Shown piece after piece: positions 15,141 to 63,758 of a DNA stretch of 64,000 nucleotides. The stretch covers positions 2,340,501-2,404,500 of the forward strand of contig NZ_CP075189.1 in assembly GCF_020510565.1 (NCBI RefSeq), in the 5' to 3' direction. The notes beneath the pieces are model-generated. The model was not told the DNA's origin. It saw nothing but the letters and a program-made list of their open reading frames with translations, and searched no databases. Made by a program: the position numbers and the translations under genes. Position 1 is the first letter of the stretch. Each line of letters opens with the position of its first letter. Source of the stretch: Ferribacterium limneticum. Its GTDB lineage: Bacteria; Pseudomonadota; Gammaproteobacteria; Burkholderiales; Rhodocyclaceae.

Positions 15141-15176
15141 ATTTCAATTTTGGCCGAAATTTCCGGTTGACCGTGG
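15141..15176 (-). repeat. Dispersed 35-bp repeat, copy 1
   Basis: Read on the minus strand it begins CCACGGTCAACCGGAAA, then TTTC, then GGCCAAAATTGAAAT. It sits in the 131-bp gap between the aroG stop and the DUF167 gene. It is one of the best-matching copies and can serve as the reference for the family. Confidence 0.85.
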
Positions 15177-15255
15177 CAACTCTTGAGGCGTCACCCCGCG
15201 TTACGCCAGGCCGATTTGTCCAATGGCATCCCGGCCTGTTATCCCCGTGGAAACC

Positions 15256-16335
15256 TCAGGAAAGCCGTTCCGGCAGCACGTCGCGGAGCATGATGGCGGC
15301 GTCGCGGATCATCTTTTCGGTGGTCGCCCAATCGACGCAGCCATCGGTGACCGAGCAGCCGTATTTGAGCTGGCTGAGATCGGCCGGAATCGACTGGTTG
15401 CCGGCTTCAATGTTGGATTCGATCATGACGCCGAGCAGCGACTTGTTGCCGAGACGGACCTGATTGACGATGTCGGCCATGACCAGCGGTTGCAGTTCGG
15501 GTTTCTTGAAGCTATTGGCGTGCGAGCAGTCGACAACGATGTTGTGCGGAAGCTTGGCCTTGTCCAGCGCCTGTTCGACCATGGCGATGGAAACGGTATC
15601 GTAGTTCGGGCGACCATCGCCACCGCGCAGCACGATGTGGCCGTAGCCGTTGCCCTTGGTACGGACGACGGCGACACGGCCCTGGCTGGTCAGGCCGAGG
15701 AAGGAATGCGGCTTGGAGGCGGAGAGGACGGCGTTGACGGCAACGCTGAGGTCGCCGCTGGTGCCGTTCTTGAAGCCGACCGGCGTGGAGAGACCGGAGG
15801 ACATCTCGCGGTGGGTCTGTGATTCGGTGGTACGGGCGCCGATGGCGGTCCACGTGATGAGGTCGCCGTAGTATTGCGGGGCGTTCGGGTCGAGTGCCTC
15901 GGTGCCGGTCGGCATGCCGATTTCGGCAACCTGGAGCAGGAATTCGCGGGCCTTGGCCATGCCGATGTCGATGCGGAAGCTGTCGTCCATGAACGGGTCG
16001 TTGATGTAGCCCTTCCAGCCGACGGTCGTGCGCGGTTTTTCGAAATAGACGCGCATGATCAGCTGCAGGGTATCGCCGACTTCTTCGGACAGCGCCTTCA
16101 GGCGACGGGCGTAGTCGAGGCCGGCCACCGGGTCGTGGATGGAGCAGGGGCCAACGACGACAAACAGGCGATGGTCCTTGCGATCCAGGATGTTGCGCAG
16201 CACATGCCGGCCATGGGTGACCGTCTTGGCGGCTTTCTCGGAAAGCGGCAGGCTGGCGTGGATTTCTTCCGGCGTCGGCATTTCGTCGAAGGCGGTGACG
16301 TTGATGTTGTCGATGTGGTGTGTGGTCATGGTCAT
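15256..16335 (-). CDS. aroG: DAHP synthase (3-deoxy-7-phosphoheptulonate synthase), AroG/AroF type
   Basis: A 359-residue type I DAHP synthase that condenses PEP and erythrose-4-phosphate, the entry step of the shikimate pathway. It has VVVGPCSIHDP, MRVYFEKPRTTVGWKG, the HANS motif VVDCSHANS, and GVMIESNIEAGNQ. Feedback sensitivity (Phe versus Tyr) was not inferred. The start overlaps the mfd stop by four bases; a second ATG lies 6 bases downstream. Confidence 0.94.
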   Translation of the reverse strand: MTMTTHHIDNINVTAFDEMPTPEEIHASLPLSEKAAKTVTHGRHVLRNILDRKDHRLFVVVGPCSIHDPVAGLDYARRLKALSEEVGDTLQLIMRVYFEKPRTTVGWKGYINDPFMDDSFRIDIGMAKAREFLLQVAEIGMPTGTEALDPNAPQYYGDLITWTAIGARTTESQTHREMSSGLSTPVGFKNGTSGDLSVAVNAVLSASKPHSFLGLTSQGRVAVVRTKGNGYGHIVLRGGDGRPNYDTVSIAMVEQALDKAKLPHNIVVDCSHANSFKKPELQPLVMADIVNQVRLGNKSLLGVMIESNIEAGNQSIPADLSQLKYGCSVTDGCVDWATTEKMIRDAAIMLRDVLPERLS

Positions 16336-21185: not shown

Positions 21186-21260
21186 CGGAGTCTCCTGAAT
21201 TGTTGTTTACATACTCAGTCTAGTCGCGATGCGGCTATTTGCCATGACCGTGATAAATCT

Positions 21261-21294
21261 CACGGTCAACCGGAAAAAAGGCCCAAAAACCAAA
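21261..21294 (+). repeat. Dispersed 35-bp repeat, copy 2 (provides a stop codon)
   Basis: CACGGTCAACCGGAAA, AAA, GGCCCAAAAACCAAA. The complement of GGTCAACC supplies the TGA that ends the minus-strand hydrolase gene, and the repeat encodes its last residues (WFLGLFSG). Confidence 0.85.
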
Positions 21295-21859
21295 TGGCGG
21301 CGGGGGCGGCCGGATCTTTGCCGATGTCCACAAGCTGCATGGCGTGAACGCCGCCAAGGTGTGATGTGGCGCGCTGGTAGGCGGTTTTGCCGATGGAGTC
21401 ATCGGCGTCGAACAGCATGAGCAGCGGCGCGACCAGCAGCTTGAGTGCTTGGGCGCCGGCCCGGTCGATCAGGCCACCGTGGCAGGCGACGGCCTTGACC
21501 AGTGTGTCGCGCTGGGCGGCGGCGCGGATGGCGGCCGGCGCAACGTCGCCGCTGGTGAAAATGGCGAGTGGCAAGGCCTCCATGTCGCCGTCCTTGCGGG
21601 TCATGTCGAGGATGTCGATCAGGCGCTGGGTCAGGCGTGGCACGTTTTGCGTGGCATCGGGGAACTGCACCTCCTGGGCGGTGAGCAGTTCCATCGTCAA
21701 GGTGGCGCAGCCGAATTCGGCAAAGCATGACGAAATGGCCGCGTCTTCCGCCGCATGGTGGGCGCGGGCGATCAGGATCAGGCCGCAGGGGTTGTCGGGG
21801 AACTCCAGATGGCCATGCAGCGAGCCATGCGGAGTTTGCAGGGTGATGAAGCGGTTCAT
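21266..21859 (-). CDS. Alpha/beta hydrolase-like protein downstream of AmmeMemoRadiSam genes
   Basis: A 197-residue protein resembling dienelactone hydrolase-type alpha/beta hydrolases. It has MNRFITLQTPHGSLHGHLEFP, GLILIARAHHAAED, IFTSGDVAPAAIRAA and VKAVACHGGLIDRAG. The expected nucleophile-elbow G-x-S/C-x-G is not clear, so catalysis is uncertain; ACHGG may be the equivalent. Its start overlaps the radical SAM gene by four bases. The open frame continues far upstream, but that part is a shadow of the radical SAM gene. The C-terminus is encoded by a dispersed repeat. Confidence 0.7.
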   Translation of the reverse strand: MNRFITLQTPHGSLHGHLEFPDNPCGLILIARAHHAAEDAAISSCFAEFGCATLTMELLTAQEVQFPDATQNVPRLTQRLIDILDMTRKDGDMEALPLAIFTSGDVAPAAIRAAAQRDTLVKAVACHGGLIDRAGAQALKLLVAPLLMLFDADDSIGKTAYQRATSHLGGVHAMQLVDIGKDPAAPAAIWFLGLFSG

Positions 21860-22950
21860 TCGGATAGTCGGACAGCGATGCGGTTCGGGCCGAAGGCTTT
21901 GCCGGCGTGGCCGAGAACCTTGCCGAAGCGGCCGGCGATGGCGGTCAAGCAATGCGGGCAACGGCCTTCCGGCGTCAGGTCGTAGCGCTGGATGTCGTAC
22001 CAGTCGCGGACGATCAGCGCGGCGTGGCAACTTGGGCAGAAGGTGGTGCCGCCTTCCGGGTCGTGCACGTTGCCGGTAAAAACGTGGTGCAGCCCGGCGT
22101 CGAGGGCGATGCGGCGGGCCTGGATGAGCGTTGCCGGTGGCGTCGGCGGGAGGTCGCCCATTTTCCAGTCGGGGTGAAAGGCGGAGAAGTGCAGCGGCAC
22201 GTCCGGCCCGAGTTCGCGGGCGACCCAAGTGGCCAGTTCGTTGATCTCCTGGGCGCTGTCGTTCTGGCCGGGAATGAGCAGGGTGGTGATTTCCAGCCAG
22301 CAGTCGGTTTCGTGGTGTATGTAGGCCAGCGTGTCGAGCACCGGCTGCAGATGGCCGACGCAGAGCTTGTGATAGAAGCTCTCGGTAAAGGCCTTGAGGT
22401 CTACGTTGGCGGCATCCATGACGGCGAACAGCTCGCGGGCCGGTTCCGGGTGGATGTAGCCGGCGGTAACGGCGACGTTGCGAATGCCCTGTTCGCGGCA
22501 GGCGAGTGCCGTGTCGATGGCGTACTCGGCGAAGGTGACCGGGTCGTTGTAAGTGTAGGCCACGGCGTCGGCGCTGTAGCGGCGGGCGGCTGCGGCGATT
22601 ATCTGCGGGCTGGCCGTGTCCATCAGGCGGTCCATGTCCTTCGACTTGGAAATGTCCCAGTTCTGGCAGAACTTGCAGGCCAGATTGCAGCCGGCGGTGC
22701 CGAAGGACAGGATGCTGCTGCCCGGATAAAAGTGATTGAGCGGCTTTTTTTCGACGGGATCGATGCAGAAGCCCGACGAGCGGCCATAGGTTGTCAGTTG
22801 CATGGCGCCATTGACCATCTGGCGGACGAAGCAGGCGCCGCGCTGGCCTTCGTGCAACTGGCAGTCGCGCGGGCAGAGGTCGCATTGCACGCGGCCGTCG
22901 GGCAGGGCGTGCCACCAGCGGCCGGGGAACAGGGATTCGGTGGCGCTCAT
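21856..22950 (-). CDS. AmmeMemoRadiSam system radical SAM enzyme
   Basis: A 364-residue radical SAM protein of the PflA-like subgroup. The N-terminus has a ferredoxin-like cysteine set (VQCDLCPRDCQLHEGQRGAC), the SAM cluster is CNLACKFCQNWD, and a C-terminal pair of zinc-type CPSC and CPHC motifs follows. This arrangement is the defining radical SAM member of the AmmeMemoRadiSam three-gene system, whose reaction is not established. ATG 22950 has AAGGAGG in front. The start overlaps the AMMECR1-like gene by four bases. Confidence 0.92.
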   Translation of the reverse strand: MSATESLFPGRWWHALPDGRVQCDLCPRDCQLHEGQRGACFVRQMVNGAMQLTTYGRSSGFCIDPVEKKPLNHFYPGSSILSFGTAGCNLACKFCQNWDISKSKDMDRLMDTASPQIIAAAARRYSADAVAYTYNDPVTFAEYAIDTALACREQGIRNVAVTAGYIHPEPARELFAVMDAANVDLKAFTESFYHKLCVGHLQPVLDTLAYIHHETDCWLEITTLLIPGQNDSAQEINELATWVARELGPDVPLHFSAFHPDWKMGDLPPTPPATLIQARRIALDAGLHHVFTGNVHDPEGGTTFCPSCHAALIVRDWYDIQRYDLTPEGRCPHCLTAIAGRFGKVLGHAGKAFGPNRIAVRLSE

Positions 22951-23495
22951 GGTGCGGCCTCCTTCCATTTCTTGACACCGTAGCGTTCGAGGCGGACGTC
23001 CGAGCCCCAGTAATTGGCCGGCAGCCCGGCTTTCTGCTTGAGGTGGGCCATGAAGACGACCGGGGCGGGCAGTTGCTCCCAGACTTGCGGCAAGAAAGTC
23101 GAACGACGACGGCCCGCAGTGAAAATCACGCCATCGATATCCGGGCGCAGTTGGTCCAGAGCATCGGCCTCGCTGGTAAATAATATTGGCTCGGCCGGCG
23201 TCAGCAGCGAGACTTCGACGCGGGTGATGGGCAATTCGTCGGCCGTCAGCGGCTCGAAACGCGGGTCGCGAAAAGCGGCGGCCAGGGCATTTTCGTGAAC
23301 ATCCTGGGCCAGCGGTCGCCAGGCTTCGAGGCTGCCGATGCAGCCGCGCAGGTCGCCATGCTGGGTCAGCGTGACGAAGGTGGCGCCGTGTTGATGCAAT
23401 TCCGGGTAGTCATTGGTCGGGGTTTGCCCGAGACCGAAGCGGCCGGAAATGGCATTTCGGGCCAGGGTCAGCAGGGTTGTGCCGAGCTCAGACAT
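22947..23495 (-). CDS. AmmeMemoRadiSam system protein A (AMMECR1 domain)
   Basis: A 182-residue AMMECR1-domain protein starting MSELGTTLLTLARNAIS at 23495. The conserved LRGCIGSLEAWRPL block (the LRGCIG hexapeptide of AMMECR1) is present, as is VEVSLLTPAEPI. The frame open further upstream lies inside the Memo-like gene. It overlaps that gene by 8 bases and the radical SAM gene by 4, a tightly coupled trio. Confidence 0.9.
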   Translation of the reverse strand: MSELGTTLLTLARNAISGRFGLGQTPTNDYPELHQHGATFVTLTQHGDLRGCIGSLEAWRPLAQDVHENALAAAFRDPRFEPLTADELPITRVEVSLLTPAEPILFTSEADALDQLRPDIDGVIFTAGRRRSTFLPQVWEQLPAPVVFMAHLKQKAGLPANYWGSDVRLERYGVKKWKEAAP

Positions 23496-25599: not shown

Positions 25600-26286
25600 A
25601 TGCCACGCCATTACGCAATCGTTCCCGCTGCCGGCAGCGGTTCCCGCTTCGGAAGCGAGAAGCCGAAGCAGTATCTCGACCTGCTCGGTCGGCCGCTGAT
25701 TTTCCATACCTTGAAGGCCTTGACGGCTTGCCCGGACATCGAACGGGTATGGGTCGTGCTGGCTCCGGATGACCCGTGGTGGCCGCGCTACGATTGGAGT
25801 GAGCTCGGCCCCAAGCTCGAAACCGTGCGCTGCGGCGGCGCGACGCGGGCGGCGAGCGTGAGCAACGGATTGCGGGCGGCGGCGATGGTTGCCGCCGACG
25901 ATGACTGGATCCTCGTGCACGACGCGGCGCGGCCCTGCCTGTCGGCGGCCATGCTCGAGGCGCTGTTCGACGAGTTGGCTGACGATGCGGTTGGCGGCAT
26001 CCTCGCCGTGCCGGTCGCCGACACCATCAAGCGGGCCGATGCCGGGCAGCGCGTTGCTGCCACCGAGCCACGCGACGGTTTGTGGCAGGCACAGACGCCG
26101 CAGATGTTTCGCTACGGTCAACTGGAAAAATCGCTCAAAAATGAAATGGCCGTCACCGACGAAGCCGGTGCCATCGAGGCCATGGGCCTCAAGCCGAAAC
26201 TCGTGCGCGGCGATTCGACCAATCTGAAAGTCACCTATCCGGCCGACCTCGCCTTGGCCGCGATGATCTTGAGAGCACGCAAATGA
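25600..26286 (+). CDS. ispD: 2-C-methyl-D-erythritol 4-phosphate cytidylyltransferase IspD
   Basis: A 228-residue cytidylyltransferase, third step of the MEP isoprenoid pathway. It has the nucleotide-binding [32 protein letters not shown], and the DEAGAIE substrate motif. It ends overlapping ispF by four bases, so the two consecutive pathway enzymes are translationally coupled. The promoter must lie in the AT-rich 41-bp divergent gap. Confidence 0.95.
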
Positions 26287-26777: not shown

Positions 26778-27363
26778 GCGGCGAAACCAGAAACAACCCA
26801 AACCGGCCACGGCCAGAGTTTTCTTCGCCCTCTGGCCAGCGCCTGAGGTGGCCGAGCGCCTCGGCACAATCGCCGACAACGCCGCCCTGTCGTTCGGCGG
26901 CCGCGCCACCCGGCGCGACACCATCCACCTGACGCTGGCCTTTCTCGGCAACGTTCCCGAAGCGCGTCTGCCTGAATTGTCGAAGGCCGTCACCAGCCTT
27001 CGCGCCGAGCCATTCGCCATCAACGTGAATCAGCTCGGCTTTTGGGCGCACAACCATTTGCTGTGGGCTGGGTGCAAGGCACCATCGGCTCATCTGGACG
27101 CGCTATCAAGCCAGTTGCGCCAGGCGCTGGCGCGGGCCGGATTCCGGGTCGGGGGCGAAGGCCGGGATTTCGTGCCCCATGTCACGCTGGTCCGCCGCGT
27201 ACCGGAGGTAACTGAGCCGTCGGAAAGCCACCCGCTTCCGTCAATTGAACCCTTCATCTGGTGCAACGAACGTTTCGTGCTGGTTTGTTCGACGCTGTCG
27301 GCGCTCGGCTCGTCCTACCGGATCATCGACGAATTCCCGCTGACGACGGGCCTCAGGGCCTGA
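26767..27363 (+). CDS. thpR: RNA 2',3'-cyclic phosphodiesterase / 2'-5' RNA ligase ThpR
   Basis: About 198 residues with the two H-x-T catalytic motifs of the 2H phosphoesterase family: HLTLAFLG (about residue 57) and HVTLVRR (about residue 138). The N-terminus [16 protein letters not shown] is typical. No ATG is available: the start is GTG 26767 or TTG 26770, both overlapping the ispF stop, so translation is coupled to ispF. The 3' end overlaps the convergent histidine kinase by 11 bases. Confidence 0.85.
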
Positions 27364-28657
27364 TCGGCAGGACCAGGCGAACGAGCAGGCCGCCGCCAGG
27401 ATTGGGCAGCAGATCGAGCCGTCCTTCATGTAGACGGGCGATACGCTCGACGATGGCCAGTCCGAGCCCCGTGCCGGTGGCGTCGGTGCGGGCGTTCTCG
27501 AGCCGGGTGAAGGGGCGTTTCAGGCGTTCGATCTCGTCTGCCGGCACGCCGGGACCGCGATCCTTGATTTCCAGCCAAATTTCCCCGTTGACCGTAGCAG
27601 CCGACAAAGTGATCTCGCCGCCGCCGTATTTGACGGCATTGTCGATCAGGTTGGTTACGGCGCGGGTGATCGCCTTTGGCCGCAGCGTCGTTTCGGGCAG
27701 GGCTTCAATTGCCGTGGTCAGGGCATGGCCAACATAGCGTTGGCGCTCGACAATGCTCGACAGCAGGGCGCCAAGATCGGTCGCCACTGCCGCCTCGCCG
27801 GATTCTGTCCGGGCGTAATCCATGAACTGCGAAATCACCGCTTCCATCTGTTCGATGTCGGCCACCACAGCCTGACGGGCATTGTCGGCGACGCTCATTT
27901 CGGCCTCCAGACGCAACCGGGTGAGCGGGGTGCGCAGGTCGTGCGAGATGCCGGCCAGCACCTCCGATCTATCCTTTTCATGCCGTTCGAGGTCGGCCGC
28001 CATGGTGTTGAAGGCGACGGCCAGACGACTCAGTTCCTCAGCGCCATCCTCCGGCAGCGGCGCCGGCGTCTGGCCGCGGCCGACCGCCTCGGCCGATCTG
28101 GCCATGGCCTTGAGCGGCCGGCTGATGCGCGAGGCGATGAGCCAGGCGACCGCCAGGGCCAGGACTACGGCGAGCAGCCCCCAGGCCAGCCAGTGGCTGG
28201 CGAAATCGCGGGCCGCACGGTCGCGCGGCAGGACCAGCCAGTATTCTTCGTCATCGGCGTCATCGAGGCGGAAGCTGACCCAGAATCCGGAAACCTCGTC
28301 GACGCTGGCGGCAATCCGCGTGTGGTCGCCCAGGCGCGCCGTCAGCTCGCGTTGCAGGAGCCGGAAAAAGCGCGAATCTGGCATGGCCTCGATCTTGTCT
28401 TCCGGTTCGGCCGGCAGCAGGCGGATGCCTTCGCGTGTAGAGAATTCGTTGAACAGCCCGAGACGTTTCGCCGGTGCTGCGGCAAACAGTGAGGCGCGGA
28501 TCAGGTTGACTGCCGAAGCGGCCAGTTGCGCCGTTTCCCGCGCTCGCGGTTCGGCATCGATGTAACGGAACAGGCTGAGCCAGCCCGCCGTGGTCAGCAG
28601 CACGAGCATGGCGAGCAACAGAAAGGTGCGCGCCAGCAGCGTGCGTGGCATCAGCAC
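27353..28657 (-). CDS. Membrane sensor histidine kinase (EnvZ/RisS-like)
   Basis: A 434-residue sensor kinase. It has TM1 near residues 10-28, a periplasmic sensor of about 130 residues, and TM2 near 160-180. HAMP (SRISRPLKAMARSAEAVGRG), HisKA with GISHDLRTPLTRLRLEAEM (phospho-His about residue 240), and HATPase with NLIDNAVKYGGG, DRGPGVP and GTGLGLAIV follow. It follows its response regulator by a few bases; start GTG 28657 or ATG 28651. The ATVNGEIWLEI segment before the G1 box looks like a degenerate copy of the dispersed repeat. Confidence 0.9.
   Translation of the reverse strand: MLMPRTLLARTFLLLAMLVLLTTAGWLSLFRYIDAEPRARETAQLAASAVNLIRASLFAAAPAKRLGLFNEFSTREGIRLLPAEPEDKIEAMPDSRFFRLLQRELTARLGDHTRIAASVDEVSGFWVSFRLDDADDEEYWLVLPRDRAARDFASHWLAWGLLAVVLALAVAWLIASRISRPLKAMARSAEAVGRGQTPAPLPEDGAEELSRLAVAFNTMAADLERHEKDRSEVLAGISHDLRTPLTRLRLEAEMSVADNARQAVVADIEQMEAVISQFMDYARTESGEAAVATDLGALLSSIVERQRYVGHALTTAIEALPETTLRPKAITRAVTNLIDNAVKYGGGEITLSAATVNGEIWLEIKDRGPGVPADEIERLKRPFTRLENARTDATGTGLGLAIVERIARLHEGRLDLLPNPGGGLLVRLVLPIRP
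27565..27597 (-). repeat. Possible degenerate dispersed repeat inside the kinase gene
   Basis: On the minus strand CTACGGTCAACGGGGAAA is followed by TTTGGCTGGAAATC, close to the repeat family with one inserted base. It is in frame and encodes ATVNGEIWLEI just before the DRGPG box. Because kinases commonly have a similar strand there, chance resemblance is possible. Confidence 0.35.
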
Positions 28658-31897: not shown

Positions 31898-31933
31898 ATT
31901 TCATTTTTGGCTGTTTTTCCCGGTTGACCGTGG
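31898..31933 (-). repeat. Dispersed 35-bp repeat, copy 3
   Basis: Minus strand: CCACGGTCAACCGGGAAAAA then CAGCCAAAAATGAAAT. It lies in the 61-bp gap between the convergent udg and lplT genes. One G is inserted in the left block. Confidence 0.8.
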
Positions 31934-31945: not shown

Positions 31946-33301
31946 TCAGTGGTGTGACGAGTCGTCCAGATGCTGGACGTCGTCCTGCTGCGCTTGGTTG
32001 GCGAGGTGGCGCTGGCGGATCATATACATGAGCCCGCTGACGAACAGCCCGAACAGCGTGACGACCCAGTAGATCGACAGGTCCATCTTGACCATGAGGT
32101 AGTACAGCCCCGTCATGATCAGGATGGAGATGTTTTCGTTGAAATTCTGCACGGCGATCGAGTGGCCGGCGCCCATCAGGATGTGGCCGCGGTGCTGGAG
32201 CAGGGCGTTCATCGGCACGACGAAGAAGCCGGACAGGCCGCCGATCAGGATGAGCAGCGGCACGGCCAGCCATATTTCATGAACGAAGTTCATGATGAGC
32301 ACGATGAGGCCCATGGCGATGCCGAGCGGGATGACCCGGACCGACTTGCGCAGGGTGATGAACTTGGCGGCCATGATGGCGCCGACCGCGACGCCGACGG
32401 CGACCACGCCCTGGAGCATCGAGGCTTTGGACAGACCGAGGCCCAGCGCGGTTTCCGACCATTTGATGACGATGAATTGCAGCGTTGCACCGGCGCCCCA
32501 GAACAGCGTGGTGACAGCCAGCGAAATCTGGCCGAGGCGGTCGCGCCAGAGCAGCGTCAGGCAGTGATTGAATTCGTGGATCAGGAAGATCGGATTCTTC
32601 TTGAGCGCCTTGTGGTCGACGCCGGTGTCGGGAATGTACAGATTGAAGACGGCAGCGAGGATGTAGAGCACGGCGACGACCGAGAGGGCCATTTCGCCGA
32701 TGCTGTCGACCCCGGTGTCGATCACCGGGAAGTCGAAAGCCAGCAGGTGCTGGGCGATCTCCGGGCGGATCAGGGTGCCGCCGATGACGACGCCGAGGAT
32801 GATGGCGCCGACGGTCAGGCCTTCGATCCAGCCGTTGGCGACGACGAGCAGGCGGTGCGGCAGGTATTCGGTCAGGATGCCGTACTTGGCCGGCGAGTAG
32901 GCAGCGGCGCCGAGGCCGACGACGGCGTAGGCGAGTAGCGGATGGGCGCCGAAGAACATCATGCTGCAGCCGATGATCTTGATACCGTTGCTGATCAGCA
33001 TGACCCGGCCCTTGGGCATCGAATCGGCGAAGGCGCCGACGAAGGCGGCGAGGACTACATAGGAAACGGTGAAGAAGGTCTTGAGGAGCGGTTCGTACTC
33101 TGACGGCGCCTGCATCTCGCGCAGCGCGGCGATGGCGGCAATGAGCAGGGCGTTGTCGGCCAGCGCGGAAAAAAACTGCGCGGCCATGATGATGTAGAAG
33201 CCGAACGGCACGAAATATTTGTCTCTTATATGACTTTGGGCGAGGTTTATACCACGCTCAGGATTCGGCGCAAGGCTTGCGCGATCGTCGCCGTTATGCA
33301 T
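31946..33301 (-). CDS. lplT: Lysophospholipid transporter LplT
   Basis: An MFS-type transporter of about 451 residues with 12 predicted helices. The signature AAQFFSALADNALLIAA is characteristic of LplT, which moves lysophosphatidylethanolamine across the inner membrane. GAAAYSPAKYGILTEYLP and LIGGLSGFFVVPMNALLQHRG also fit. In E. coli it is partnered with Aas; no acyltransferase is adjacent here. I chose ATG 33301; the frame extends to 33331, and the true start may be even later since residues before HIRDKYFVPFGF look unconserved. Confidence 0.85.
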   Translation of the reverse strand: MHNGDDRASLAPNPERGINLAQSHIRDKYFVPFGFYIIMAAQFFSALADNALLIAAIAALREMQAPSEYEPLLKTFFTVSYVVLAAFVGAFADSMPKGRVMLISNGIKIIGCSMMFFGAHPLLAYAVVGLGAAAYSPAKYGILTEYLPHRLLVVANGWIEGLTVGAIILGVVIGGTLIRPEIAQHLLAFDFPVIDTGVDSIGEMALSVVAVLYILAAVFNLYIPDTGVDHKALKKNPIFLIHEFNHCLTLLWRDRLGQISLAVTTLFWGAGATLQFIVIKWSETALGLGLSKASMLQGVVAVGVAVGAIMAAKFITLRKSVRVIPLGIAMGLIVLIMNFVHEIWLAVPLLILIGGLSGFFVVPMNALLQHRGHILMGAGHSIAVQNFNENISILIMTGLYYLMVKMDLSIYWVVTLFGLFVSGLMYMIRQRHLANQAQQDDVQHLDDSSHH

Positions 33302-33403: not shown

Positions 33404-33437
33404 CCACGGTCAACCGGAAATTTGGCCCGAAATTGAA
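33404..33437 (+). repeat. Dispersed 35-bp repeat, copy 4
   Basis: CCACGGTCAACCGGAAA, TTT, GGCCCGAAATTGAA. It lies in the divergent gap between lplT and the LysR gene, 66 bases before the LysR start, so it could influence either promoter. Confidence 0.85.
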
Positions 33438-33502
33438 GTTGGCCGCCGGAAGCAGGGCGGAATGTGGTTGAATATCGGCCGCACCCCTCCAGGAGAGAAA
33501 TC

Positions 33503-34405: not shown

Positions 34406-35514
34406 AAACCTCGCGTCCCATTCGCGCGCGCATCGCGCCGGCGGCGATTCTCCACAACTACCGGCTGGCCAAAAGTCATGCGCCGCAGGCCAAGGCATGG
34501 GCGGTCGTCAAGGCCAACGCTTACGGCCACGGACAATGGCGGGCGGTCGAAGCCCTGCGCGGCGAAGCTGACGGTTTTGCCCTGCTCGAATGCGAAAACG
34601 CTGTCGCCCTGCGCGAAGCCGGCGTCACCCAGCCCATCCTGCTCCTCGAAGGCGTCTTCAGCGCCCGCGATGTGCGCGCCGTCATCGAACACCGGCTGAC
34701 CTGCGTTGTCCATTGCCTCGAACAACTGGAACTGCTCGTGCGCAACGGCCAGTTTACGGCACCCGTTGCGCTTTACCTCAAGCTCAATACCGGCATGAAC
34801 CGCCTTGGTTTTACGCCGGAAACCTTGGGAAAGGCCTGGGCGATCCTCCAGCAACTGCCGCAGGTCGACGTCTCGCTGATGACCCATTTTGCCGAAGCCG
34901 ATGGCGAGCGTGGCGTCAGCGAACAGCTTGAGCGCTTTCGCCGAATGGCTGGCGACTGGCGCGGTCCGGTCAGCCTGGCCAACTCGGCGGCCATCCTGCG
35001 CCACCCGACAACGCACGGCGACTGGGTGCGGCCGGGCATCATGCTTTACGGCGCCAGCCCGTTTGCCGAGATCAGCGCCGAGTCGCTCGGCCTGCAGCCG
35101 GTGATGACCCTGGAGAGCGCCATCATCGGCGTCCAGGATCTGGTCGCCGGCGACCGCGTCGGTTACGGCGGCACCTTCACGGCCGACAAACCGATGCGCA
35201 TTGGTGTCGTTGCCTGCGGCTATGCCGACGGCTACCCGCGCCACGCGACTAGCGGCACGCCGATTGCCGTCATGGGGAAACGCACGCAGACGGTCGGCCG
35301 CGTCTCGATGGACATGATGGCCTGCGACCTGACCGATATTCCCGAAGCCGGCATCGGCGCGCCGGTTACGCTGTGGGGCGAGGGCATTGCTGGCAGCGTG
35401 CCGGCCGACGAAGTCGCTGCGGCCGCCGGCACCATCGCCTACGAACTGTTCTGCGCCCTGGCGCCCCGCGTCCCGGTCAGCCTGGACGAGACTGCTACGG
35501 TCAACCGGAAATAA
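34402..35514 (+). CDS. alr: Alanine racemase
   Basis: A 370-residue PLP enzyme that makes D-alanine for peptidoglycan. The PLP lysine is in VVKANAYGHG, the catalytic Tyr region is GDRVGYGGTF, and the C-terminal beta domain has GRVSMDMMACDLTD. Its last residues TVNRK and TAA stop are encoded by a dispersed repeat, which also gives the radA start codon (TAATG). Confidence 0.94.
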   Translation: MKTSRPIRARIAPAAILHNYRLAKSHAPQAKAWAVVKANAYGHGQWRAVEALRGEADGFALLECENAVALREAGVTQPILLLEGVFSARDVRAVIEHRLTCVVHCLEQLELLVRNGQFTAPVALYLKLNTGMNRLGFTPETLGKAWAILQQLPQVDVSLMTHFAEADGERGVSEQLERFRRMAGDWRGPVSLANSAAILRHPTTHGDWVRPGIMLYGASPFAEISAESLGLQPVMTLESAIIGVQDLVAGDRVGYGGTFTADKPMRIGVVACGYADGYPRHATSGTPIAVMGKRTQTVGRVSMDMMACDLTDIPEAGIGAPVTLWGEGIAGSVPADEVAAAAGTIAYELFCALAPRVPVSLDETATVNRK

Positions 35515-35529
35515 TGGCCAAAATCAAAA
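35495..35529 (+). repeat. Dispersed 35-bp repeat, copy 5 (alr stop / radA start)
   Basis: CTACGGTCAACCGGAAA, TAAT, GGCCAAAATCAAAAC. It contains both the alr TAA and the radA ATG, and encodes TVNRK at the end of alr and MAKIKT at the start of radA. The element therefore bridges two genes in different frames. Confidence 0.85.
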
Positions 35530-36875
35530 CAATTTATAGCTGCACTGAATGCGGCGCCACCAGCCCGAAATGGCAAGGCCAGTGCCCGGGCTGCAACGAC
35601 TGGAACACGCTGGTCGAAACCGTCGCTGAAAAAGCCCCGACCAACAGCCGCTTTGAATCGCTGGCGCCCACCGCCCGGCTGCAGAACCTCTCGGAAATCG
35701 AAGCGCGCGAAGTCGACCGCATCGCCACCGGTGTCGGCGAATTCGACCGGGCGCTCGGCGGCGGGCTGGTCAACGGCGCCGTCGTGCTGATCGGCGGCGA
35801 CCCCGGCATCGGCAAGAGCACCTTGCTCCTGCAGGCGTTGGCCCACCTGTCGCTCGACAACAAGGTGCTCTACGTCAGCGGTGAGGAATCCGGCGAACAG
35901 GTCGCCCTGCGCGCCCGCCGTCTTGGCCTCGATACCCGGCGTTTGCAATTGATGGCCGAGATCAACCTCGAACGCATCCTCGCCACGCTGCAGGCAGAAA
36001 AGCCGGTCGTTGCGGTCATCGATTCGATCCAGACGCTATGGTCCGACCAGCTTTCCAGCGCCCCCGGCTCAGTCGCCCAGGTGCGCGAATGCGCCGCACA
36101 ACTGACCCGGCTGGCCAAGCAGGCCGGCATCACGGTGATTCTGGTCGGTCACGTGACAAAGGAGGGCGCCCTGGCCGGGCCGCGCGTGCTCGAACACATC
36201 GTGGACACCGTGCTCTATTTCGAGGGCGACACGCACTCGAGCTTCCGCCTCGTGCGCGCCGTCAAGAACCGCTTTGGCGCGGTCAATGAAATCGGCGTTT
36301 TTGCCATGACGGAAACCGGCTTGAAAGGCGTTAGCAATCCTTCAGCCCTGTTCCTGTCGCAGCACGGGCAGGACGTGGCGGGTTCTTGTGTGATGGTGAC
36401 GCAGGAGGGCACGCGGCCGCTGCTTGTCGAAATCCAGGCGCTGGTCGATACCTCGCACGGCAATCCGCGCCGGCTCACGGTCGGCCTGGATCCGCAACGC
36501 CTGGCCATGTTGCTGGCGGTTTTGCATCGTCATGCCGGTATCGTCTGCTTCGATCAGGATGTTTTCGTCAATGCCGTCGGCGGCGTCAAGATTACCGAGC
36601 CTGCGGCCGATTTGGCAGTCTTGTTGTCGATTACATCATCGTTAAAAAACAAACCATTGCCGTCGAAACTTATTGTATTTGGTGAAGTTGGTCTGGCCGG
36701 TGAGATTCGCCCGGCACCGCGCGGCCAGGAGCGTTTGAAGGAAGCCGCCAAGCTCGGTTTCACGCGCGCCCTGATTCCTGAGGCGAACCGGCCCAAACAG
36801 GCGATTGCCGGCATGGAAGTCATCGCTGTCAAACGCGTCGAGGAGGCGGTGGCGCGGATCCGCGAGTTGGAATAA
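35514..36875 (+). CDS. radA: DNA repair/recombination protein RadA (Sms)
   Basis: A 453-residue RecA-like helicase for branch migration. The N-terminal zinc finger is CTECGATSPKWQGQCPGC, Walker A is GGDPGIGKSTLLLQ, the KNRFG signature is present (AVKNRFGAVNEIG), and a Lon-like C-terminal domain follows. ATG 35514 overlaps the alr stop; a longer frame running back through alr is a shadow. The usual RadA N-terminus MAK-x-K-T-x-Y is preserved although it is written by a repeat. Confidence 0.95.
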   Translation: MAKIKTIYSCTECGATSPKWQGQCPGCNDWNTLVETVAEKAPTNSRFESLAPTARLQNLSEIEAREVDRIATGVGEFDRALGGGLVNGAVVLIGGDPGIGKSTLLLQALAHLSLDNKVLYVSGEESGEQVALRARRLGLDTRRLQLMAEINLERILATLQAEKPVVAVIDSIQTLWSDQLSSAPGSVAQVRECAAQLTRLAKQAGITVILVGHVTKEGALAGPRVLEHIVDTVLYFEGDTHSSFRLVRAVKNRFGAVNEIGVFAMTETGLKGVSNPSALFLSQHGQDVAGSCVMVTQEGTRPLLVEIQALVDTSHGNPRRLTVGLDPQRLAMLLAVLHRHAGIVCFDQDVFVNAVGGVKITEPAADLAVLLSITSSLKNKPLPSKLIVFGEVGLAGEIRPAPRGQERLKEAAKLGFTRALIPEANRPKQAIAGMEVIAVKRVEEAVARIRELE

Positions 36876-41476: not shown

Positions 41477-41871
41477 AACTCGATTTCGGTGATGTTGCGC
41501 TGCCCCGACCGCTGGTAGCGGATGGCTTTGCTCATGCCGTGGATCAGGCCAAGACCTTGGCCGCCGACTTCCACGGTCAACCGGAAATTTTGCCCAAATT
41601 TGGAATGGTCAAAAGGCGGCGCATCGTCTTCGTAGCGCAGGGTCAGGATGCCATCGTTACGGCCCAGGGCGAGGCTAACCCGGTGCTCGCTGTCGCCTTG
41701 ATGGCCATGGGCGATCGTGTTGGTAAATAGCTCTTCGACAACCAGTTGCAGGCGCAGCGAATCGTCGGCGGCAAGGCCCAGCCCGGCCGCCTGTTCAGCG
41801 ATGCGGGCAATCAGCCCGGGAAGCTCGTCATAGCGCGCGCTGACGGAAATGTCCGTAAAATGTGCAGTCAT
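41473..41871 (-). CDS. RsbW/SpoIIAB-like serine kinase (anti-sigma type ATPase)
   Basis: A 132-residue GHKL ATPase starting MTAHFTDISVSARYDEL at 41871. N-box: VVEELFTNTIAHGHQ; G1-like box: YEDDAPPFD; G2 box: GGQGLGLIHGMS. Such proteins phosphorylate STAS antagonists or hold sigma factors in partner-switching systems; a STAS gene and a PP2C phosphatase gene lie nearby. No sigma factor is in the window. About 12 residues (KFGQNFRLTVEV) between the G1 and G2 boxes, in the ATP lid, are encoded by a dispersed repeat. Divergent to the FecR gene with a 21-bp gap. Confidence 0.85.
   Translation of the reverse strand: MTAHFTDISVSARYDELPGLIARIAEQAAGLGLAADDSLRLQLVVEELFTNTIAHGHQGDSEHRVSLALGRNDGILTLRYEDDAPPFDHSKFGQNFRLTVEVGGQGLGLIHGMSKAIRYQRSGQRNITEIEF
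41571..41605 (+). repeat. Dispersed 35-bp repeat, copy 6 (inside kinase gene)
   Basis: CCACGGTCAACCGGAAA, TTTT, GCCCAAATTTGGAA. It lies fully within the RsbW-like gene in antisense orientation and in frame, encoding KFGQNFRLTVE, about residues 90-101. Confidence 0.85.
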
Positions 41872-41892
41872 CGAATCATCAAGGTTTTCGCC

Positions 41893-46392: not shown

Positions 46393-46422
46393 GCCCCTAG
46401 GCGCTCTCAGGTAAAATATTGC

Positions 46423-48618
46423 ATGGATTCAAATCAGCAAAACACCCGCCCGCTCTTCGCTTACCGCAAATTCTGGGCACATCGTTTCGGGCCTGCCCCC
46501 TTCCTGCCCATGTCGCGCGCCGAGATGGAGTCTTTGGGCTGGGATTCGTGCGACATCATTCTCGTCACCGGCGATGCCTACATCGACCATCCGAGCTTCG
46601 GCATGGCCTTGATCGGGCGTTTGCTCGAAGCGCAGGGTTTTCGCGTCGGCATCATTTGCCAGCCGGACTGGAATTCTGCGGTCGACTTCAAAAAACTGGG
46701 AAAACCGAACCTTTTCTTCGGCGTCACGGCCGGCAACATGGACTCGATGGTCAATCGCTACACGGCCGACCGCAAGATTCGCTCCGATGATGCTTACACG
46801 CCGAACGGCGAGCCGAACAAGCGCCCGGATCATGCCGTGACGGTCTATGCCCAGCGTTGCCGCGAGGCTTTCCCTGGCTGCAACGTGGTGGTCGGTTCGA
46901 TCGAGGCCAGCCTGCGCCGTATTGCACATTACGATTACTGGTCAGACAAGGTCCGCCGTTCGGTGCTGCCCGACTCCAAGGCCGACATGCTCGTCTTTGG
47001 CAATGCCGAGCGGGCGATCGTCGAACTGGCCCATCGTCTGGCCAAGGGCGAGAAAATCGGTGAAATCCGCGATCTGCGCGGCACGGCTTTCATGGTGCCG
47101 CGCGGCTGGTTGCCGTCCGGGGAGTGGGAAGCTGTCGATTCGTCCTCGGTCGATACACCGGGGCCGCTGGTCAAGCACACCGACCCGTACGCCATGGAAG
47201 GCGATTCCAAAAATGGCCAAAATATCCGGTCGACCGTGGGAATGGACGCACAAGCGGGCTCGCAAAACGTCGGCCAGCCAATCCGCATCGTCTCGCGCAC
47301 CGAGCGGCTGGCGGCCCGCCAGGACCGGCGCGCCCATACCGCCATCCGCCTGCCGTCCTACGAGCAGGTCAAGGACGATCCGGTGCTCTACGCCCACGCC
47401 TCGCGTACCTTTCACCTCGAATCCAACCCCGGCAACGCCCGGGCGCTGGTGCAGGGCCACGGCGAACGCGATGTCTGGCTCAATCCGCCACCGATCCCGC
47501 TGACTACCGAAGAGCTTGATCAGGTTTACGAGTTGCCCTACGCCCGTCGTCCGCACCCGAGCTACGGTGAGGCCAAAATTCCGGCTTGGGAAATGATCCG
47601 TTTCTCGGTCAACATCATGCGCGGCTGTTTCGGCGGCTGTACCTTCTGCTCGATCACCGAGCACGAAGGGCGCATCATCCAGAGTCGTTCCGAAGACTCG
47701 GTGATCCGCGAAATCGAGGAAATGCGCGACAAGACACCGGGCTTCACCGGCATCGTCTCCGACCTCGGCGGGCCGACCGCCAACATGTTCCACCTCAAGT
47801 GCAAGGACGAGAAGATCGAGTCGGCTTGCCGTCGGCTGTCCTGCGTCTATCCGGACATCTGCGAGAACATGAACACCGATCACAGCAAGCTGATTTCGCT
47901 GTATCGCAAGGCGCGTTCGCTGAAAGGCGTCAAAAAAGTGCTGATTGGTTCCGGCCTGCGCTACGACCTCGCCGTGCGCTCACCGGAATACATCAAGGAA
48001 CTGGTCACCCATCACGTTGGCGGCTACCTGAAAATTGCTCCGGAACACACCGAAGAACGCCCGCTATCCAAGATGATGAAGCCGGGTATCGGTTCCTACG
48101 ACCGCTTCAAGCAGCTGTTCGACCGTTTCTCGCGCGAGGCCGGCAAGGAGCAGTACCTGATCCCGTACTTCATCGCCGCCCACCCAGGAACGGAAGATGA
48201 GGACATGCTCAACCTGGCGCTGTGGCTCAAAAAGAACAACTTCCGCCTCGATCAGGTGCAGACCTTCATTCCGACGCCAATGGCGATGGCGACGACGATG
48301 TATCACAGCGAACGTAACCCGCTGCGCAAAGTCACGCGTAGTAGCGAGCATGTGAACACCGTGCGCAATGGTCGCCAGCGTAAGTTGCACAAAGCCTTTC
48401 TGCGCTACCACGACCCGGCCAACTGGCCGTTGTTGCGCGAAGCCCTCAAGGAAATGGGGCGCGCCGATCTGATTGGCAATGGCAAAAAACAACTCATTCC
48501 AGCCTGGCAACCGGCCGGTACGGGCGGCACCTCGGCCGTATCCACCGGAAATATTCGGCGGAGTACGCCGGTGCCTCGCTCCGGCGTGCAGCGGCAACAG
48601 CGTTCCAAGAACAAATAA
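46423..48618 (+). CDS. YgiQ family radical SAM protein
   Basis: A 731-residue UPF0313/YgiQ radical SAM protein. The N-terminal domain has [22 protein letters not shown], the SAM cluster is in [16 protein letters not shown] (C-x3-C-x2-C), and a C-terminal DUF3362 region has [11 protein letters not shown]. Function uncharacterised. Residues about 261-272 ([12 protein letters not shown]) are encoded by a repeat copy located in a variable linker before [14 protein letters not shown]. The tail is Arg/Gln/Lys-rich. Confidence 0.93.
47204..47239 (-). repeat. Dispersed 35-bp repeat, copy 7 (inside ygiQ)
   Basis: Minus strand: CCACGGTCGACCGGATA, TTTT, GGCCATTTTTGGAAT. Somewhat diverged. It is in frame within the YgiQ gene, encoding [13 protein letters not shown], the same reading frame of the element as in the RsbW-like kinase. 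Confidence 0.7.
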
Positions 48619-52479: not shown

Positions 52480-52514
52480 CCACGGTCAACCGGAAAAAAC
52501 GGCCAAAATCGAAA
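52480..52514 (+). repeat. Dispersed 35-bp repeat, copy 8
   Basis: CCACGGTCAACCGGAAA, AAAC, GGCCAAAATCGAAA. It is located between the small TM gene and moaA, abutting the moaA stop codon on the minus strand. Confidence 0.85.
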
Positions 52515-53588
52515 TCAGCCGCCGGTCATCGACATGAAGCGGACGACTTGGGGTGCATCCATCTGTTTGGTAAAGTCGTGCCCGTAGGGCTTGATGCCCA
52601 TGCTGTCGATGATGGCCTGGCGCAGGGCCGTATCATCATTTCCGGCCCGTAAAGTCGGCAGCAGATTGGCCGCATCATTCTGGCCGAGACATGGGTAGAG
52701 TTCGCCCTTGGCGGTAATCCGGACCCGGTTGCAGCTGTCGCAGAAATTGTGGCTGTGCGGCGAAATGAATCCAACGCGTGATTCGCTGCCTGGAATGCGC
52801 CAATAACGCGCCGGTCCGCCGGAATCCTCCGTCGATGGAATCAGCTCGAAATGGCGCGACAGCATTTCCCGCGTTTCCTCGGACGAAATATAGGTATTGC
52901 TGCGCCCGTGAATTTCGCCCAGCGGCATTTCCTCGATAAACGAAATATCCAGTTCGTTTTCGATGGCAAACCTGACGAGATCGACGAATTCGTCATCGTT
53001 GGTGCCGCGCATCATCACGGCATTGAGCTTGGTGCGCCGAAATCCGGCTTGTCGCGCTGCTTCGATACCGCGCAGAACCTTGGTCAGATCGCCGATCCGG
53101 GTAATTTGCCTGAAGCGCTCCGGATTCAAGGTGTCGAGACTGATATTGATGCGCTTGACGCCGGCCGCCCGCAACGGGGCGGCAAACCGGTCAAGCTGCG
53201 AACCGTTGGTGGTGAGCACCAGATTTTCCAGGCCGGGCAGGGCGCCGAGGCGTTCAATCAGCCACATGGCATCCTTGCGCACCAGTGGCTCGCCGCCAGT
53301 GATCCGCAGCTTGGTAACACCCAGACCAACGAACACCGACGCTACGCGCAAGCACTCCTCAAGGCTCATCACCGCCTGCCGTGGCAGAAAGGTCATTTCC
53401 TCGGCCATGCAATACGTGCAGCGGAAATCGCAGCGATCGGTAATCGACAGGCGAACATAGGAAATCCGCCGCCCGTACTTGTCGAGTAGCGTGCCTTCCT
53501 GATACCCCATTGACGAGGGATCGATGCGTGGCGTGAAGTCGGCAAGGCCGACGGGCGTTACTTCCTGCCGTAGTGTTTCATTTTGCAT
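52515..53588 (-). CDS. moaA: GTP 3',8-cyclase MoaA
   Basis: A 357-residue radical SAM enzyme, first step of molybdenum cofactor synthesis. The N-terminal cluster motif is CDFRCTYC, ITGGEPL follows, and the C-terminal second cluster is CDSCNRVRITAKGELYPC. The C-terminal Gly-Gly needed for activity (MSMTGG) is present. Start ATG 53588 (MQNETLRQ); the frame is open back to 53615. It stands alone without other moa genes. Confidence 0.94.
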   Translation of the reverse strand: MQNETLRQEVTPVGLADFTPRIDPSSMGYQEGTLLDKYGRRISYVRLSITDRCDFRCTYCMAEEMTFLPRQAVMSLEECLRVASVFVGLGVTKLRITGGEPLVRKDAMWLIERLGALPGLENLVLTTNGSQLDRFAAPLRAAGVKRINISLDTLNPERFRQITRIGDLTKVLRGIEAARQAGFRRTKLNAVMMRGTNDDEFVDLVRFAIENELDISFIEEMPLGEIHGRSNTYISSEETREMLSRHFELIPSTEDSGGPARYWRIPGSESRVGFISPHSHNFCDSCNRVRITAKGELYPCLGQNDAANLLPTLRAGNDDTALRQAIIDSMGIKPYGHDFTKQMDAPQVVRFMSMTGG

Positions 53589-53826
53589 GGCGGATGTTTC
53601 ATTGATGGCCCACAAAGATTGAGGCTGCTGTCTGGTCGGCGATTATCGATGGCAGCGTGCCCTCAAACAAGTAGAGACATCAAAAATACAGAAAGTTTCT
53701 TGCCACAATGAAATAGACCCGCTTGGCCAAGAAAAAGCCCACCCCCGAAGATGCCGTGTGGATGATGCTATCATCACTTGTCACGCCACTAGGCCATATT
53801 GCAATAAACGCAGGGAGGAGTTGAAA

Positions 53827-53884: not shown

Positions 53885-53960
53885 TGGCTCCCCGACCTGG
53901 GCTCGAACCAGGGACCTACGGATTAACAGTCCGGCGCTCTACCAACTGAGCTATCGAGGA
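53885..53960 (-). tRNA. tRNA-Asn (anticodon GTT)
   Basis: A 76-base cloverleaf on the minus strand with encoded CCA. The acceptor stem is TCCTCGA / TCGGGGA with one T-G pair, and the discriminator base is G. The D-arm contains AGCTCAGTTGGTAGAGC, the anticodon loop CTGTTAA, and the T-arm GGTTCGAGCC. A consensus promoter lies upstream and a terminator downstream, so it is a single-gene unit. Confidence 0.97.
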
Positions 53961-55729: not shown

Positions 55730-55732
55730 AAA

Positions 55733-62353: not shown

Positions 62354-62753
62354 TATTTTCGGGCTCCAGCGCACGGCAGCACGCTGCAACGAAACGCCCG
62401 GGCAGGCAGCGACAGTTTCAGTTTTCGGGTTGCGTCATAAATGGTTGGCAAAGGCGATGGTGAATGTGCTGATCAACAGACGGCCGCGTGCTTTTTATTG
62501 AAATGCGCGACCTGAAAATTCCTGCAACGGGCAATCCGTGCGTGCTTACAGTGGGCTTATCCATTAACATCACTACTTTTGGTGAGTGAACTTAACCAGT
62601 CGTTTTACGTTGGTCTGGCCTGGGCAGTTGGCACAGGTGAGACTTTCGAGCCTGCCGCTTGGCGGTCGCGCATTTAGCGCAAGGTCACAAACGGTCTGAC
62701 GGTTCGGCATCTCTTGCAAACCGAGACGTAGAACGCAGGCAGTATATTAGAAA
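62354..62753. other. 400-bp divergent rne/rluC regulatory region
   Basis: No gene is visible. The rne side probably holds a long 5' leader; in E. coli such a leader mediates RNase E autoregulation. CTGGAGC serves as ribosome site at the rne start. On the rluC side TATATT (62743-62748) ends only five bases before the rluC ATG. If it is the -10 box, the transcript would be leaderless. I could not fold the leader by eye. Confidence 0.45.
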
Positions 62754-63758
62754 ATGACCGGGGTAGGTAACAATTCAGTCACGCACGCAGTCATCGGCGA
62801 AGAAGAAGAGGGGCAGCGCCTCGACAACTTTTTGATTCGCCGTTGCAAGGGGGTTCCGAAGAGCCATATCTACCGGATTTTGCGGAGCGGAGAAGTACGG
62901 GTGAATAGCGGCCGGGTTGATGCAACTTATCGTCTTTGCGCTGGCGATAATGTGCGAATTCCGCCGATTCGCATTGCTGAGCGGCCGCAAAACGAGGTCG
63001 ACGAAGTCGCCAAGGAGCGCGTCGATCTGCCGATTATTTACGAAGACGAGGCAATGCTCGTCATCGACAAGCCGGAAGGTATTGCCGTCCATGGTGGCAG
63101 CGGCGTCAGTTTTGGCGTGATCGAGGCTTTGCGCCGACAGCGACCGCAAGCCAAGTTTCTTGAGCTGGCGCACCGACTTGATCGCGAGACCTCCGGTGTG
63201 CTGCTCGTTGGCAAGAAGCGACTGGCGCTGACTGCGTTGCACGACATGTTTCGCGAACACGGGGCAGGGGCTGACAAGCGCTATCTGGTTCTGGTCAAAG
63301 GGCGTTGGATGAACGTCACCCAGCACGTGAAGTTGCCCCTGCACAAATATCTGACTGAGGGCGGTGAGCGGCGTGTTTCGGTAAATCCCGAGGGCAAGGC
63401 TTCACATACGATCTTCCGTTTGCTGGCTCGCTGGTCGGATATGAGCCTACTTGAAGCGCAACTGAAAACCGGGCGCACGCACCAGATTCGAGTTCATCTG
63501 GCGCATCTTGGCTTTCCTATCCTTGGTGACGAGAAGTACGGTGATTTCGCGTTGAACAAGAATCTGAAACGCGATGGCCTGAAACGCATGGCGCTCCATG
63601 CCTGGCGGATGGCTTTTCGCCACCCGCTGATGGCAACTCCGCTTGAGTGTATTGCGCCACTGCCGGATAGCTTCGGTAGCTACATTGCCACGGTCAACCG
63701 GAAAAAAGACCCGGAATTCAAATCCGACAATCTGGACGAGATATTGAACAAACGATGA
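62754..63758 (+). CDS. rluC: 23S rRNA pseudouridine synthase RluC
   Basis: A 334-residue RluA-family enzyme. The N-terminal S4 domain (EGQRLDNFLIRRCKGVPKSHIYRILRSGEVRVN) precedes the catalytic domain, with HRLDRETSGVLLVGKK (catalytic Asp) and KTGRTHQIRVHLAHLGFPILGDEKYG. It probably modifies U955, U2504 and U2580 of 23S rRNA. The last 20 residues (TVNRKKDPEFKSDNLDE and on) are partly encoded by a dispersed repeat. Divergence from rne is a conserved arrangement. Confidence 0.94.
   Translation: MTGVGNNSVTHAVIGEEEEGQRLDNFLIRRCKGVPKSHIYRILRSGEVRVNSGRVDATYRLCAGDNVRIPPIRIAERPQNEVDEVAKERVDLPIIYEDEAMLVIDKPEGIAVHGGSGVSFGVIEALRRQRPQAKFLELAHRLDRETSGVLLVGKKRLALTALHDMFREHGAGADKRYLVLVKGRWMNVTQHVKLPLHKYLTEGGERRVSVNPEGKASHTIFRLLARWSDMSLLEAQLKTGRTHQIRVHLAHLGFPILGDEKYGDFALNKNLKRDGLKRMALHAWRMAFRHPLMATPLECIAPLPDSFGSYIATVNRKKDPEFKSDNLDEILNKR
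63688..63722 (+). repeat. Dispersed 35-bp repeat, copy 9 (end of rluC)
   Basis: CCACGGTCAACCGGAAA, AAA, GACCCGGAATTCAAA. It is in frame within rluC, encoding ATVNRKKDPEFK close to the C-terminus, the same frame of the left block as in alr. Confidence 0.85.

What the first reader, a model, noticed from the sequence alone, without database searches (positions are those of the whole stretch)
15141..63722. A dispersed ~35-bp repeat with nine clear copies in 49 kb, several inside genes
Copies at 15141, 21261, 31898, 33404, 35495, 41571, 47204, 52480 and 63688 share a left block CCACGGTCAACCGGAAA, a 3-5 base spacer and a right block near GGCCAAAAT with an A-rich end. Six are in one orientation and three in the other. 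The density (about one per 5-6 kb) suggests hundreds in the genome. They tolerate coding positions and often sit at gene ends. The behaviour resembles Rickettsia palindromic elements or REP/MITE-type repeats, but the left block is only weakly palindromic (CGGT-CA-ACCG). A protein-binding site or uptake-like sequence is the alternative. I do not recognise it as a named family.
Basis: partly seen in the sequence, partly recalled or inferred. Interest (0 to 1): 0.85.

Follow-up and report, generated by a model that had tools for sequence, protein, structure and literature searches.

The report
Uptake-type repeat with genus-wide dialects
This bacterium, of the Azonexus/Dechloromonas group, carries about 700 copies of a short DNA signature that its relatives carry in different 'dialects'; it looks like the self-recognition tag with which some other bacteria choose to take up DNA of their own kind.

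Summary
The repeat is real. All nine listed copies exist, plus two weaker ones; the one-contig genome holds 723 core matches against 12 of a reversed control, evenly on both strands. It is a fixed-length, gapless ~38-bp motif: TgC[CT]ACGGTCAACCGGAAAWWWnGGCCAAAWTTGAAAT. It does not behave like a mobile repeat: positions are unequally conserved, there are no shared flanks, and most coding copies align to relatives without a repeat-sized length gain (one exception; non-coding copies are mixed, and sites are gapped more often than random windows). In the genus (Azonexus/Dechloromonas), 39 of 76 genomes carry 324-1491 copies of a shared core, CGGTCRAC, with an A/T tract about two helical turns downstream, in several dialects. 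A three-genome clade uses AATGCTACGGTC instead, at the radA start in the same place. Genomes sampled outside the genus are at or near background. Copies are scarcer in low-GC stretches, show no replication-strand bias and favour non-coding, above all convergent, spaces. Best explanation (0.78): a DNA uptake sequence, built like the Pasteurellaceae USS, in a third bacterial family. The receptor is unknown and uptake was not tested. A 2025 paper's introduction names only Neisseriaceae and Pasteurellaceae as families with such sequences.

The parts
15141..15176 (-). copy between ORFs 14747-15124 (-) and 15256-16335 (-)
   Evidence: exact core; ORFs
21260..21295 (+). copy at the end of ORF 21266-22978 (-)
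   Evidence: ORF
26112..26147 (+). weaker copy inside ispD (25600-26286 +)
   Evidence: IspD by Pfam; ungapped in 30 of 30 genus loci, own included
27562..27597 (-). weak copy inside a RisS-like sensor kinase gene (27353-28657 -)
   Evidence: 3 mismatches to the 17-mer; Pfam; ungapped in 14 of 14 relatives with a hit, one of them partial
31898..31933 (-). copy just beyond the end of ORF 31946-33331 (-)
   Evidence: ORF
33404..33439 (+). copy upstream of a LysR-type regulator gene (33464-34405 +)
   Evidence: Pfam
35495..35530 (+). copy spanning the alanine racemase stop codon (35512-35514) and the ATG of the radA-like gene (35514)
   Evidence: the same place carries another dialect in genome G227
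41571..41606 (+). copy inside a HATPase_c_2 gene (41473-41907 -)
47204..47239 (-). copy inside a radical-SAM gene (46126-48618 +); the one coding copy with a consistent length gain
52480..52515 (+). copy at the end of a moaA-like gene (52515-53615 -)
63688..63723 (+). copy near the 3' end of a pseudouridine synthase gene (62754-63758 +)

Best explanation
It is a DNA uptake sequence: a site that a surface receptor of the natural-transformation machinery (probably a type IV pilus minor pilin) binds, so that cells preferentially import DNA of their own lineage. Imported DNA carrying good sites replaces resident alleles with poor ones, so the motif accumulates in place at permissive positions of the core genome. 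When the receptor's specificity drifts the whole genome follows and a dialect results; when specific uptake is lost the copies decay. Architecture: a sequence-specific core (CGGTC plus dialect-specific neighbours) and A/T tracts about one and two helical turns downstream, plausibly for bending or melting. Shown: the motif, its numbers, its dialects, mostly in-place origin in coding sequence, restriction to the genus among the genomes sampled, scarcity in low-GC stretches. Inferred: the receptor, uptake itself and the biased-conversion dynamics.
For: 723 copies against 12 control, strand-balanced; 71 on leading and 83 on lagging strand by GC skew (p 0.38). Exact copies outnumber single mismatches, 88 to 38. 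Generic pattern CGGTCRAC-16N-WWWW: 39 of 76 genus genomes have 324 to 1491 copies, 6 have 110 to 144, 31 have fewer than 100. Third dialect: 218, 325 and 266 copies in G227, G553 and G557, one clade with support 98/99. A/T tract centred about +24 from the core C in 6 of 6 samples enriched for CGGTCRAC and, by its own core, in G227; weak or none in G244 and G112. Outside the genus: 194 of 194 family genomes have 3 or fewer copies of the core; 296 of 296 order genomes have 39 or fewer of the generic pattern. In-place origin: ispD site ungapped in 30 of 30 loci (own included), kinase site in 14 of 14 relatives with a hit; 12 of 12 coding sites compared with four sampled genomes have net length -6 to +9. 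Low-GC stretches: 11 sites in 140 kb against 143 in 704 kb (p 4.5e-4). 45% of sites wholly in CDS against 83% at random. ComEC intact in the genome; 16 pilin-type N-termini over cut-off.
Against: No uptake experiment. No receptor found: a PilA-like pilin and a FimT-like pilin do not track dialect, and NCBIfam names none of nine pilins beyond the generic prepilin domain at its cut-offs. Most motif-poor genomes keep ComEC, and ComEC is split or broken in some rich ones (G200, G206). Aligned sites are gapped more often than random windows (32 of 44 against 360 of 2495, a few sites counted twice through overlapping loci); over coding sites net length is zero in 14 of 29 alignments against 86% of control windows and within 9 nt in 20 of 29 against 98%; site 47204 shows +18 to +33 nt in 5 relatives, and 3 of 12 non-coding alignments show +25 to +50. 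So some copies came with length change or imported segments. Density (about 1 per 5.7 kb) is below the one per kb reported for DUS and USS. Some low-count congeners are above control (G244 110 against 32, G112 88 against 24). DprA, ComEA, PilQ and PilT were not searched.
Confidence: 0.78

Rival explanations
1. A binding site for an intracellular chromosome-organising or DNA-repair protein (nucleoid-associated, Chi-like or segregation site) whose specificity drifts between species.
For: Unclumped spread (mean 3.67, variance 2.96 per 20 kb), a graded binding-site logo with phased A/T tracts, restriction to the genus in the samples.
Against: No strand bias relative to GC-skew replication direction (density by distance from the origin was not tested formally); fewer than 100 copies in 28 of 76 congeners even after the third-dialect clade is set aside, with at least three state changes forced on a 30-row tree, whereas such sites usually serve conserved functions (recalled); exact copies outnumber near copies, which the 2006 Pasteurellaceae paper calls a shared trait of USS and DUS, unlike regulatory binding sites.
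Confidence: 0.13
2. A mobile miniature repeat (REP/REPIN, RPE, MITE) inserted at many places.
For: High copy number and strong consensus; sites gapped more often than random windows; some non-coding sites and site 47204 show length gain.
Against: Most coding copies align without a repeat-sized gain; no identical pair among 125 copies, element identity median 0.75, best flank identity per copy median 0.44 and 0.42; covariation, though above null on average (0.052 against 0.034 bits), passes the highest null value only between near neighbours, 9 of 325 pairs; folds less than random genomic DNA; two dialects at the same place.
Confidence: 0.04
3. A transcription terminator or other RNA element at gene ends.
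For: Enriched in convergent intergenic spaces: 30 sites in 19.3 kb, against 42 in 66.9 kb tandem and 6 in 11.8 kb divergent.
Against: Orientation beyond stop codons is even, 47 against 49; folding weaker than the genomic average; 70 of 154 sites lie wholly inside genes; only 3 pairs under 300 nt apart.
Confidence: 0.03

Closest known systems
Uptake signal sequence (USS) of Pasteurellaceae, Hin type AAGTGCGGT and Apl type ACAAGCGGT
   Same: Hundreds of strand-balanced copies, strong consensus, arises in place, core plus two A/T-rich segments at helical-turn spacing. The common core CGGTC overlaps the USS inner core GCGG; the dialects of G228, G236 and G062 favour GCGGTC.
   Different: Different family and class (Rhodocyclales, Betaproteobacteria); in most dialects the core continues into RAC; core-to-tract distance longer by my reading of the paper's numbering; about a sixth of the density in this genome; uptake and receptor unproven.
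DNA uptake sequence (DUS) of Neisseriaceae, with eight dialects and receptor ComP
   Same: Dialects sharing a short inner core and following phylogeny; frequent at permissive core-genome positions, absent from recently acquired genes.
   Different: DUS is a continuous motif of up to about 13 nt without A/T segments; sequence unrelated (GCCGTCTGAA); often in inverted-repeat terminators, here mostly single copies; ComP not identified here.
REP/REPIN and Rickettsia palindromic elements (features recalled)
   Same: Short, dispersed, hundreds of copies.
   Different: No palindromic fold, mostly no insertion pattern in coding sites, two dialects at one place.

Membership tests
DNA uptake sequence (functional kind: DUS/USS) | strongly over-represented short motif, hundreds of copies, both strands equally | tested here: met
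DNA uptake sequence (functional kind: DUS/USS) | more perfect than singly mismatched copies | tested here: met
   88 exact, 38 with one mismatch in 844 kb sampled
DNA uptake sequence (functional kind: DUS/USS) | arises in place, not by insertion | tested here: met
   coding sites, with one exception (47204); non-coding sites mixed, and gaps more frequent than in control windows
DNA uptake sequence (functional kind: DUS/USS) | dialects that follow phylogeny, with a shared inner core | tested here: met
   the clade test is for the third dialect only, on a tree from one short protein
DNA uptake sequence (functional kind: DUS/USS) | rare in recently acquired DNA | tested here: met
   low-GC stretches as proxy; cut-off of 0.57 chosen after seeing the table
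DNA uptake sequence (functional kind: DUS/USS) | carrier is naturally competent | not testable with these tools
   only ComEC and pilin genes seen
DNA uptake sequence (functional kind: DUS/USS) | motif raises uptake or transformation; bound by a surface receptor | not testable with these tools
   none; two pilin candidates did not track dialect
Pasteurellaceae USS | 9-nt core AAGTGCGGT or ACAAGCGGT | tested here: not met
   cores; only GCGG(TC) is shared, in some dialects
Neisseriaceae DUS | GCCGTCTGAA-type core with inner CTG | tested here: not met
   logos
REP/REPIN or MITE | palindromic fold of the element | tested here: not met
   mean MFE -9.5 and -11.4 (two strands) against -15.4 for random genomic 55-mers, -8.6 for shuffles
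REP/REPIN or MITE | insertion footprint at orthologous places | tested here: not met
   12 of 12 coding sites with net -6 to +9; 47204 and some non-coding sites do show length gain against other relatives
REP/REPIN or MITE | linked RAYT or parental transposase | not tested

The most novel reading that the evidence does not exclude
Uptake sequences exist in a third bacterial family, with several dialects inside one genus and one clade that changed dialect in place, and their GCGGTC-type core with helically phased A/T tracts matches the Pasteurellaceae USS because the receptors are homologous, so that one uptake-recognition system spans two proteobacterial classes.
Probability: 0.12. Interest if true: 0.95.

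Novelty: new variant of a known kind. Interest (0 to 1): 0.86.

Why it matters
Specific uptake sequences are stated to be known in only two families (PMC12616744, introduction). A third, independent case, with many dialects, repeated presence and absence among congeners, and close relatives on both sides of a switch, would allow the long-argued question of why cells discriminate at DNA uptake (safe recombination or a by-product of receptor bias) to be tested by comparison. That these bacteria are environmental rather than pathogens of people is recalled, not tested. A second USS-like architecture would also suggest a common physical need for bendable DNA during import.

Tried and rejected
Protein-coding repeat: the opposite strand reads FPVDR in one frame and frames are biased (24 and 23 of 68 single-gene coding sites in two frames), but 21 of 68 are in other frames, a stop falls in that frame in copy 26112 (read by eye), and 84 of 154 sites are not wholly coding, so this is taken as codon tolerance. 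Strand-skewed segregation signal: rejected. Terminator: rejected. PilA-like pilin at 764736 as receptor: relatives of similar score in rich and poor genomes alike. FimT-like pilin at 1631259: 81% identical in one same-dialect genome (G249), but at 46% or less in the other same-dialect genomes listed with a match over 100 residues. ComEC loss as the cause of motif poverty: only a few cases, and some rich genomes are affected too. Counting orthologous dialect switches by blastn was muddied by multi-copy loci, so I rest on the radA start. De novo words also picked up local repeats in G062, G227 and G547, set aside. No paper on this motif was found in the listings (open-licence PMC only; some searches showed 25 of 41, 15 of 35 and 10 of 14 papers); other words could still find one.

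Full report
Observation. In the own genome (one contig, 4,150,051 bp) the 15-base core occurs 723 times at up to 2 mismatches, 359 and 364 per strand, against 12 for the reversed control.

Anatomy. From 844 kb of own sequence (39 stretches outside the window plus the window; L062 dropped because it lies inside it) the logo of 88 exact copies is gapless: TgC[CT]ACGGTCAACCGGAAA, three A/T, one free base, GGCC, AAA plus A/T, TTGAAAT. Matches to the core number 88, 38, 28 and 48 at 0, 1, 2 and 3 mismatches; the last include background. Among 125 copies with at most one mismatch no two are identical over 40 bp. Mean covariation is above the shuffled null (0.052 against 0.034 bits), but only 9 of 325 position pairs pass the highest null value, all near neighbours such as AAA or TTT in one tract. 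Flanks are unlike (median best identity 0.44 and 0.42; single values up to 0.94), and the folded copies are less stable than random genomic 55-mers.

Place in the genome. With home-made gene calls (691 genes, 85% coding), 70 of 154 sites lie wholly in CDS, 63 wholly outside and 21 across an edge; random windows give 83%, 13% and 4%. Convergent spaces are densest: 30 sites in 19.3 kb, against 42 in 66.9 kb tandem and 6 in 11.8 kb divergent. Orientation beyond stop codons is 47 same, 49 opposite. Leading and lagging strands, by GC skew of each stretch, hold 71 and 83. Seven stretches of GC below 0.57 hold 11 sites in 140 kb against 143 in 704 kb (p 4.5e-4; the cut-off was chosen after seeing the table). 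A fuller exact pattern occurs in 1 contig of the IMG/VR set.

Distribution and dialects. In 199 family genomes of 68 genera, at up to 1 mismatch, only the own genus exceeds 3 copies. De novo words in 200-kb samples of congeners gave related motifs, TGCTGCGGTCRAC in G228 and AGCGGTCRAC in G236, but none in G244 and G112. Aligning all CGGTCRAC sites showed an A/T tract centred about 24 bp downstream in G000, G236, G228, G547, G062 and G147, and weak or none in G244, G112 and G227. The generic pattern CGGTCRAC-16N-WWWW was then counted. In the order, 296 genomes outside the genus have 39 or fewer. In the genus, 39 of 76 have 324 to 1491, 6 have 110 to 144 and 31 have fewer than 100; some of the low ones remain above control (G244 110 against 32, G112 88 against 24). 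G227 was among the poor, but its own words gave AATGCTACGGTCRGCCGGAAAAAATGGCCAAAATCGAAAT, its 11-base core 24 times in 200 kb. I expected three near relatives to share it; two do: G553 325 and G557 266, with G227 218, but G205 only 2. In a tree of 30 IspD proteins the three carriers form one clade (98/99) that excludes G205, while rich and poor states need at least three changes on well-supported branches.

Origin of copies. The ispD site aligns without a gap in 30 of 30 loci (own included), from the full motif through intermediates to none; the sensor-kinase site in 14 of 14 relatives with a hit, one of them partial. Of 15 coding sites with an orthologue, the 12 compared with G112, G228, G236 or G244 have net lengths -6 to +9, seven of them zero, some through balanced gaps; site 47204 gains 18 to 33 nt in five relatives; the radA-start site ranges from -45 to +17. 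Against this, sites are gapped more often than random windows (32 of 44 against 360 of 2495), net length is zero in 14 of 29 coding alignments against 86% of control windows, and 3 of 12 non-coding alignments gain 25 to 50 nt. Import of divergent segments by recombination, reported for Neisseria, could explain these, but I did not test it. At the radA start the own copy and the G227 copy lie at the same place in two dialects, which insertion does not explain.

Mechanism. A genome-wide motif with a graded binding-site logo, phased A/T tracts, dialects, frequent absence among congeners, scarcity in atypical DNA and no replication-strand bias is what DUS and USS look like (passages and section 7 of PMC1626085; passages of PMC3630211; passages of PMC2397512; abstract and introduction of PMC12616744). 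I infer specific uptake by a type IV pilus receptor. ComEC is intact in the own genome (833-aa frame; the family is found in 71 of 76 genus genomes) and 16 pilin-type N-termini exceed the cut-off. The two pilins tested across the genus do not follow dialect, so the receptor is open.

Comparison and novelty. It works like USS and DUS but is a member of neither by core sequence. The 2025 paper says that these two families are the only ones known to discriminate at uptake; the listings of my ten paper searches showed nothing on this motif or on uptake sequences in this group. The overlap of CGGTC with the USS inner core GCGG may be chance, convergence or shared receptor ancestry; it was not tested.

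Noticed in passing
G241:C1:2218607-2251879 (L349, L350) and G200:C33:109525-144033 (L351, L352): comEC is split near its start by a 33-34 kb low-GC element in two congeners; parts of the two elements are about 70-90% alike. In G241 it has a serine recombinase next to the comEC 5' end, a phage integrase, a B-type DNA polymerase and D5/VapE-like genes. The generic motif pattern has no match in either fetched stretch.
   Followed up: partly
G216:C8 near 1085724 (L353) and G232:C1:1959178-1959913 (L354): comEC matches are truncated or split in two motif-poor genomes.
   Followed up: no
window 35512-35516: The alanine racemase stop and the start codon of the radA-like gene overlap by one base inside a copy of the motif.
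   Followed up: partly
L286:2945-3110 (G227): A 9-bp tandem repeat (AAGGCTGAG-type), probably coding for a repetitive peptide.
   Followed up: no
L297-L306 (G062): 29 copies of a GAGAGAGGGAGCTA-type word in 200 kb, nature not examined.
   Followed up: no
window 53885-53960: tRNA-Asn on the - strand.
   Followed up: no
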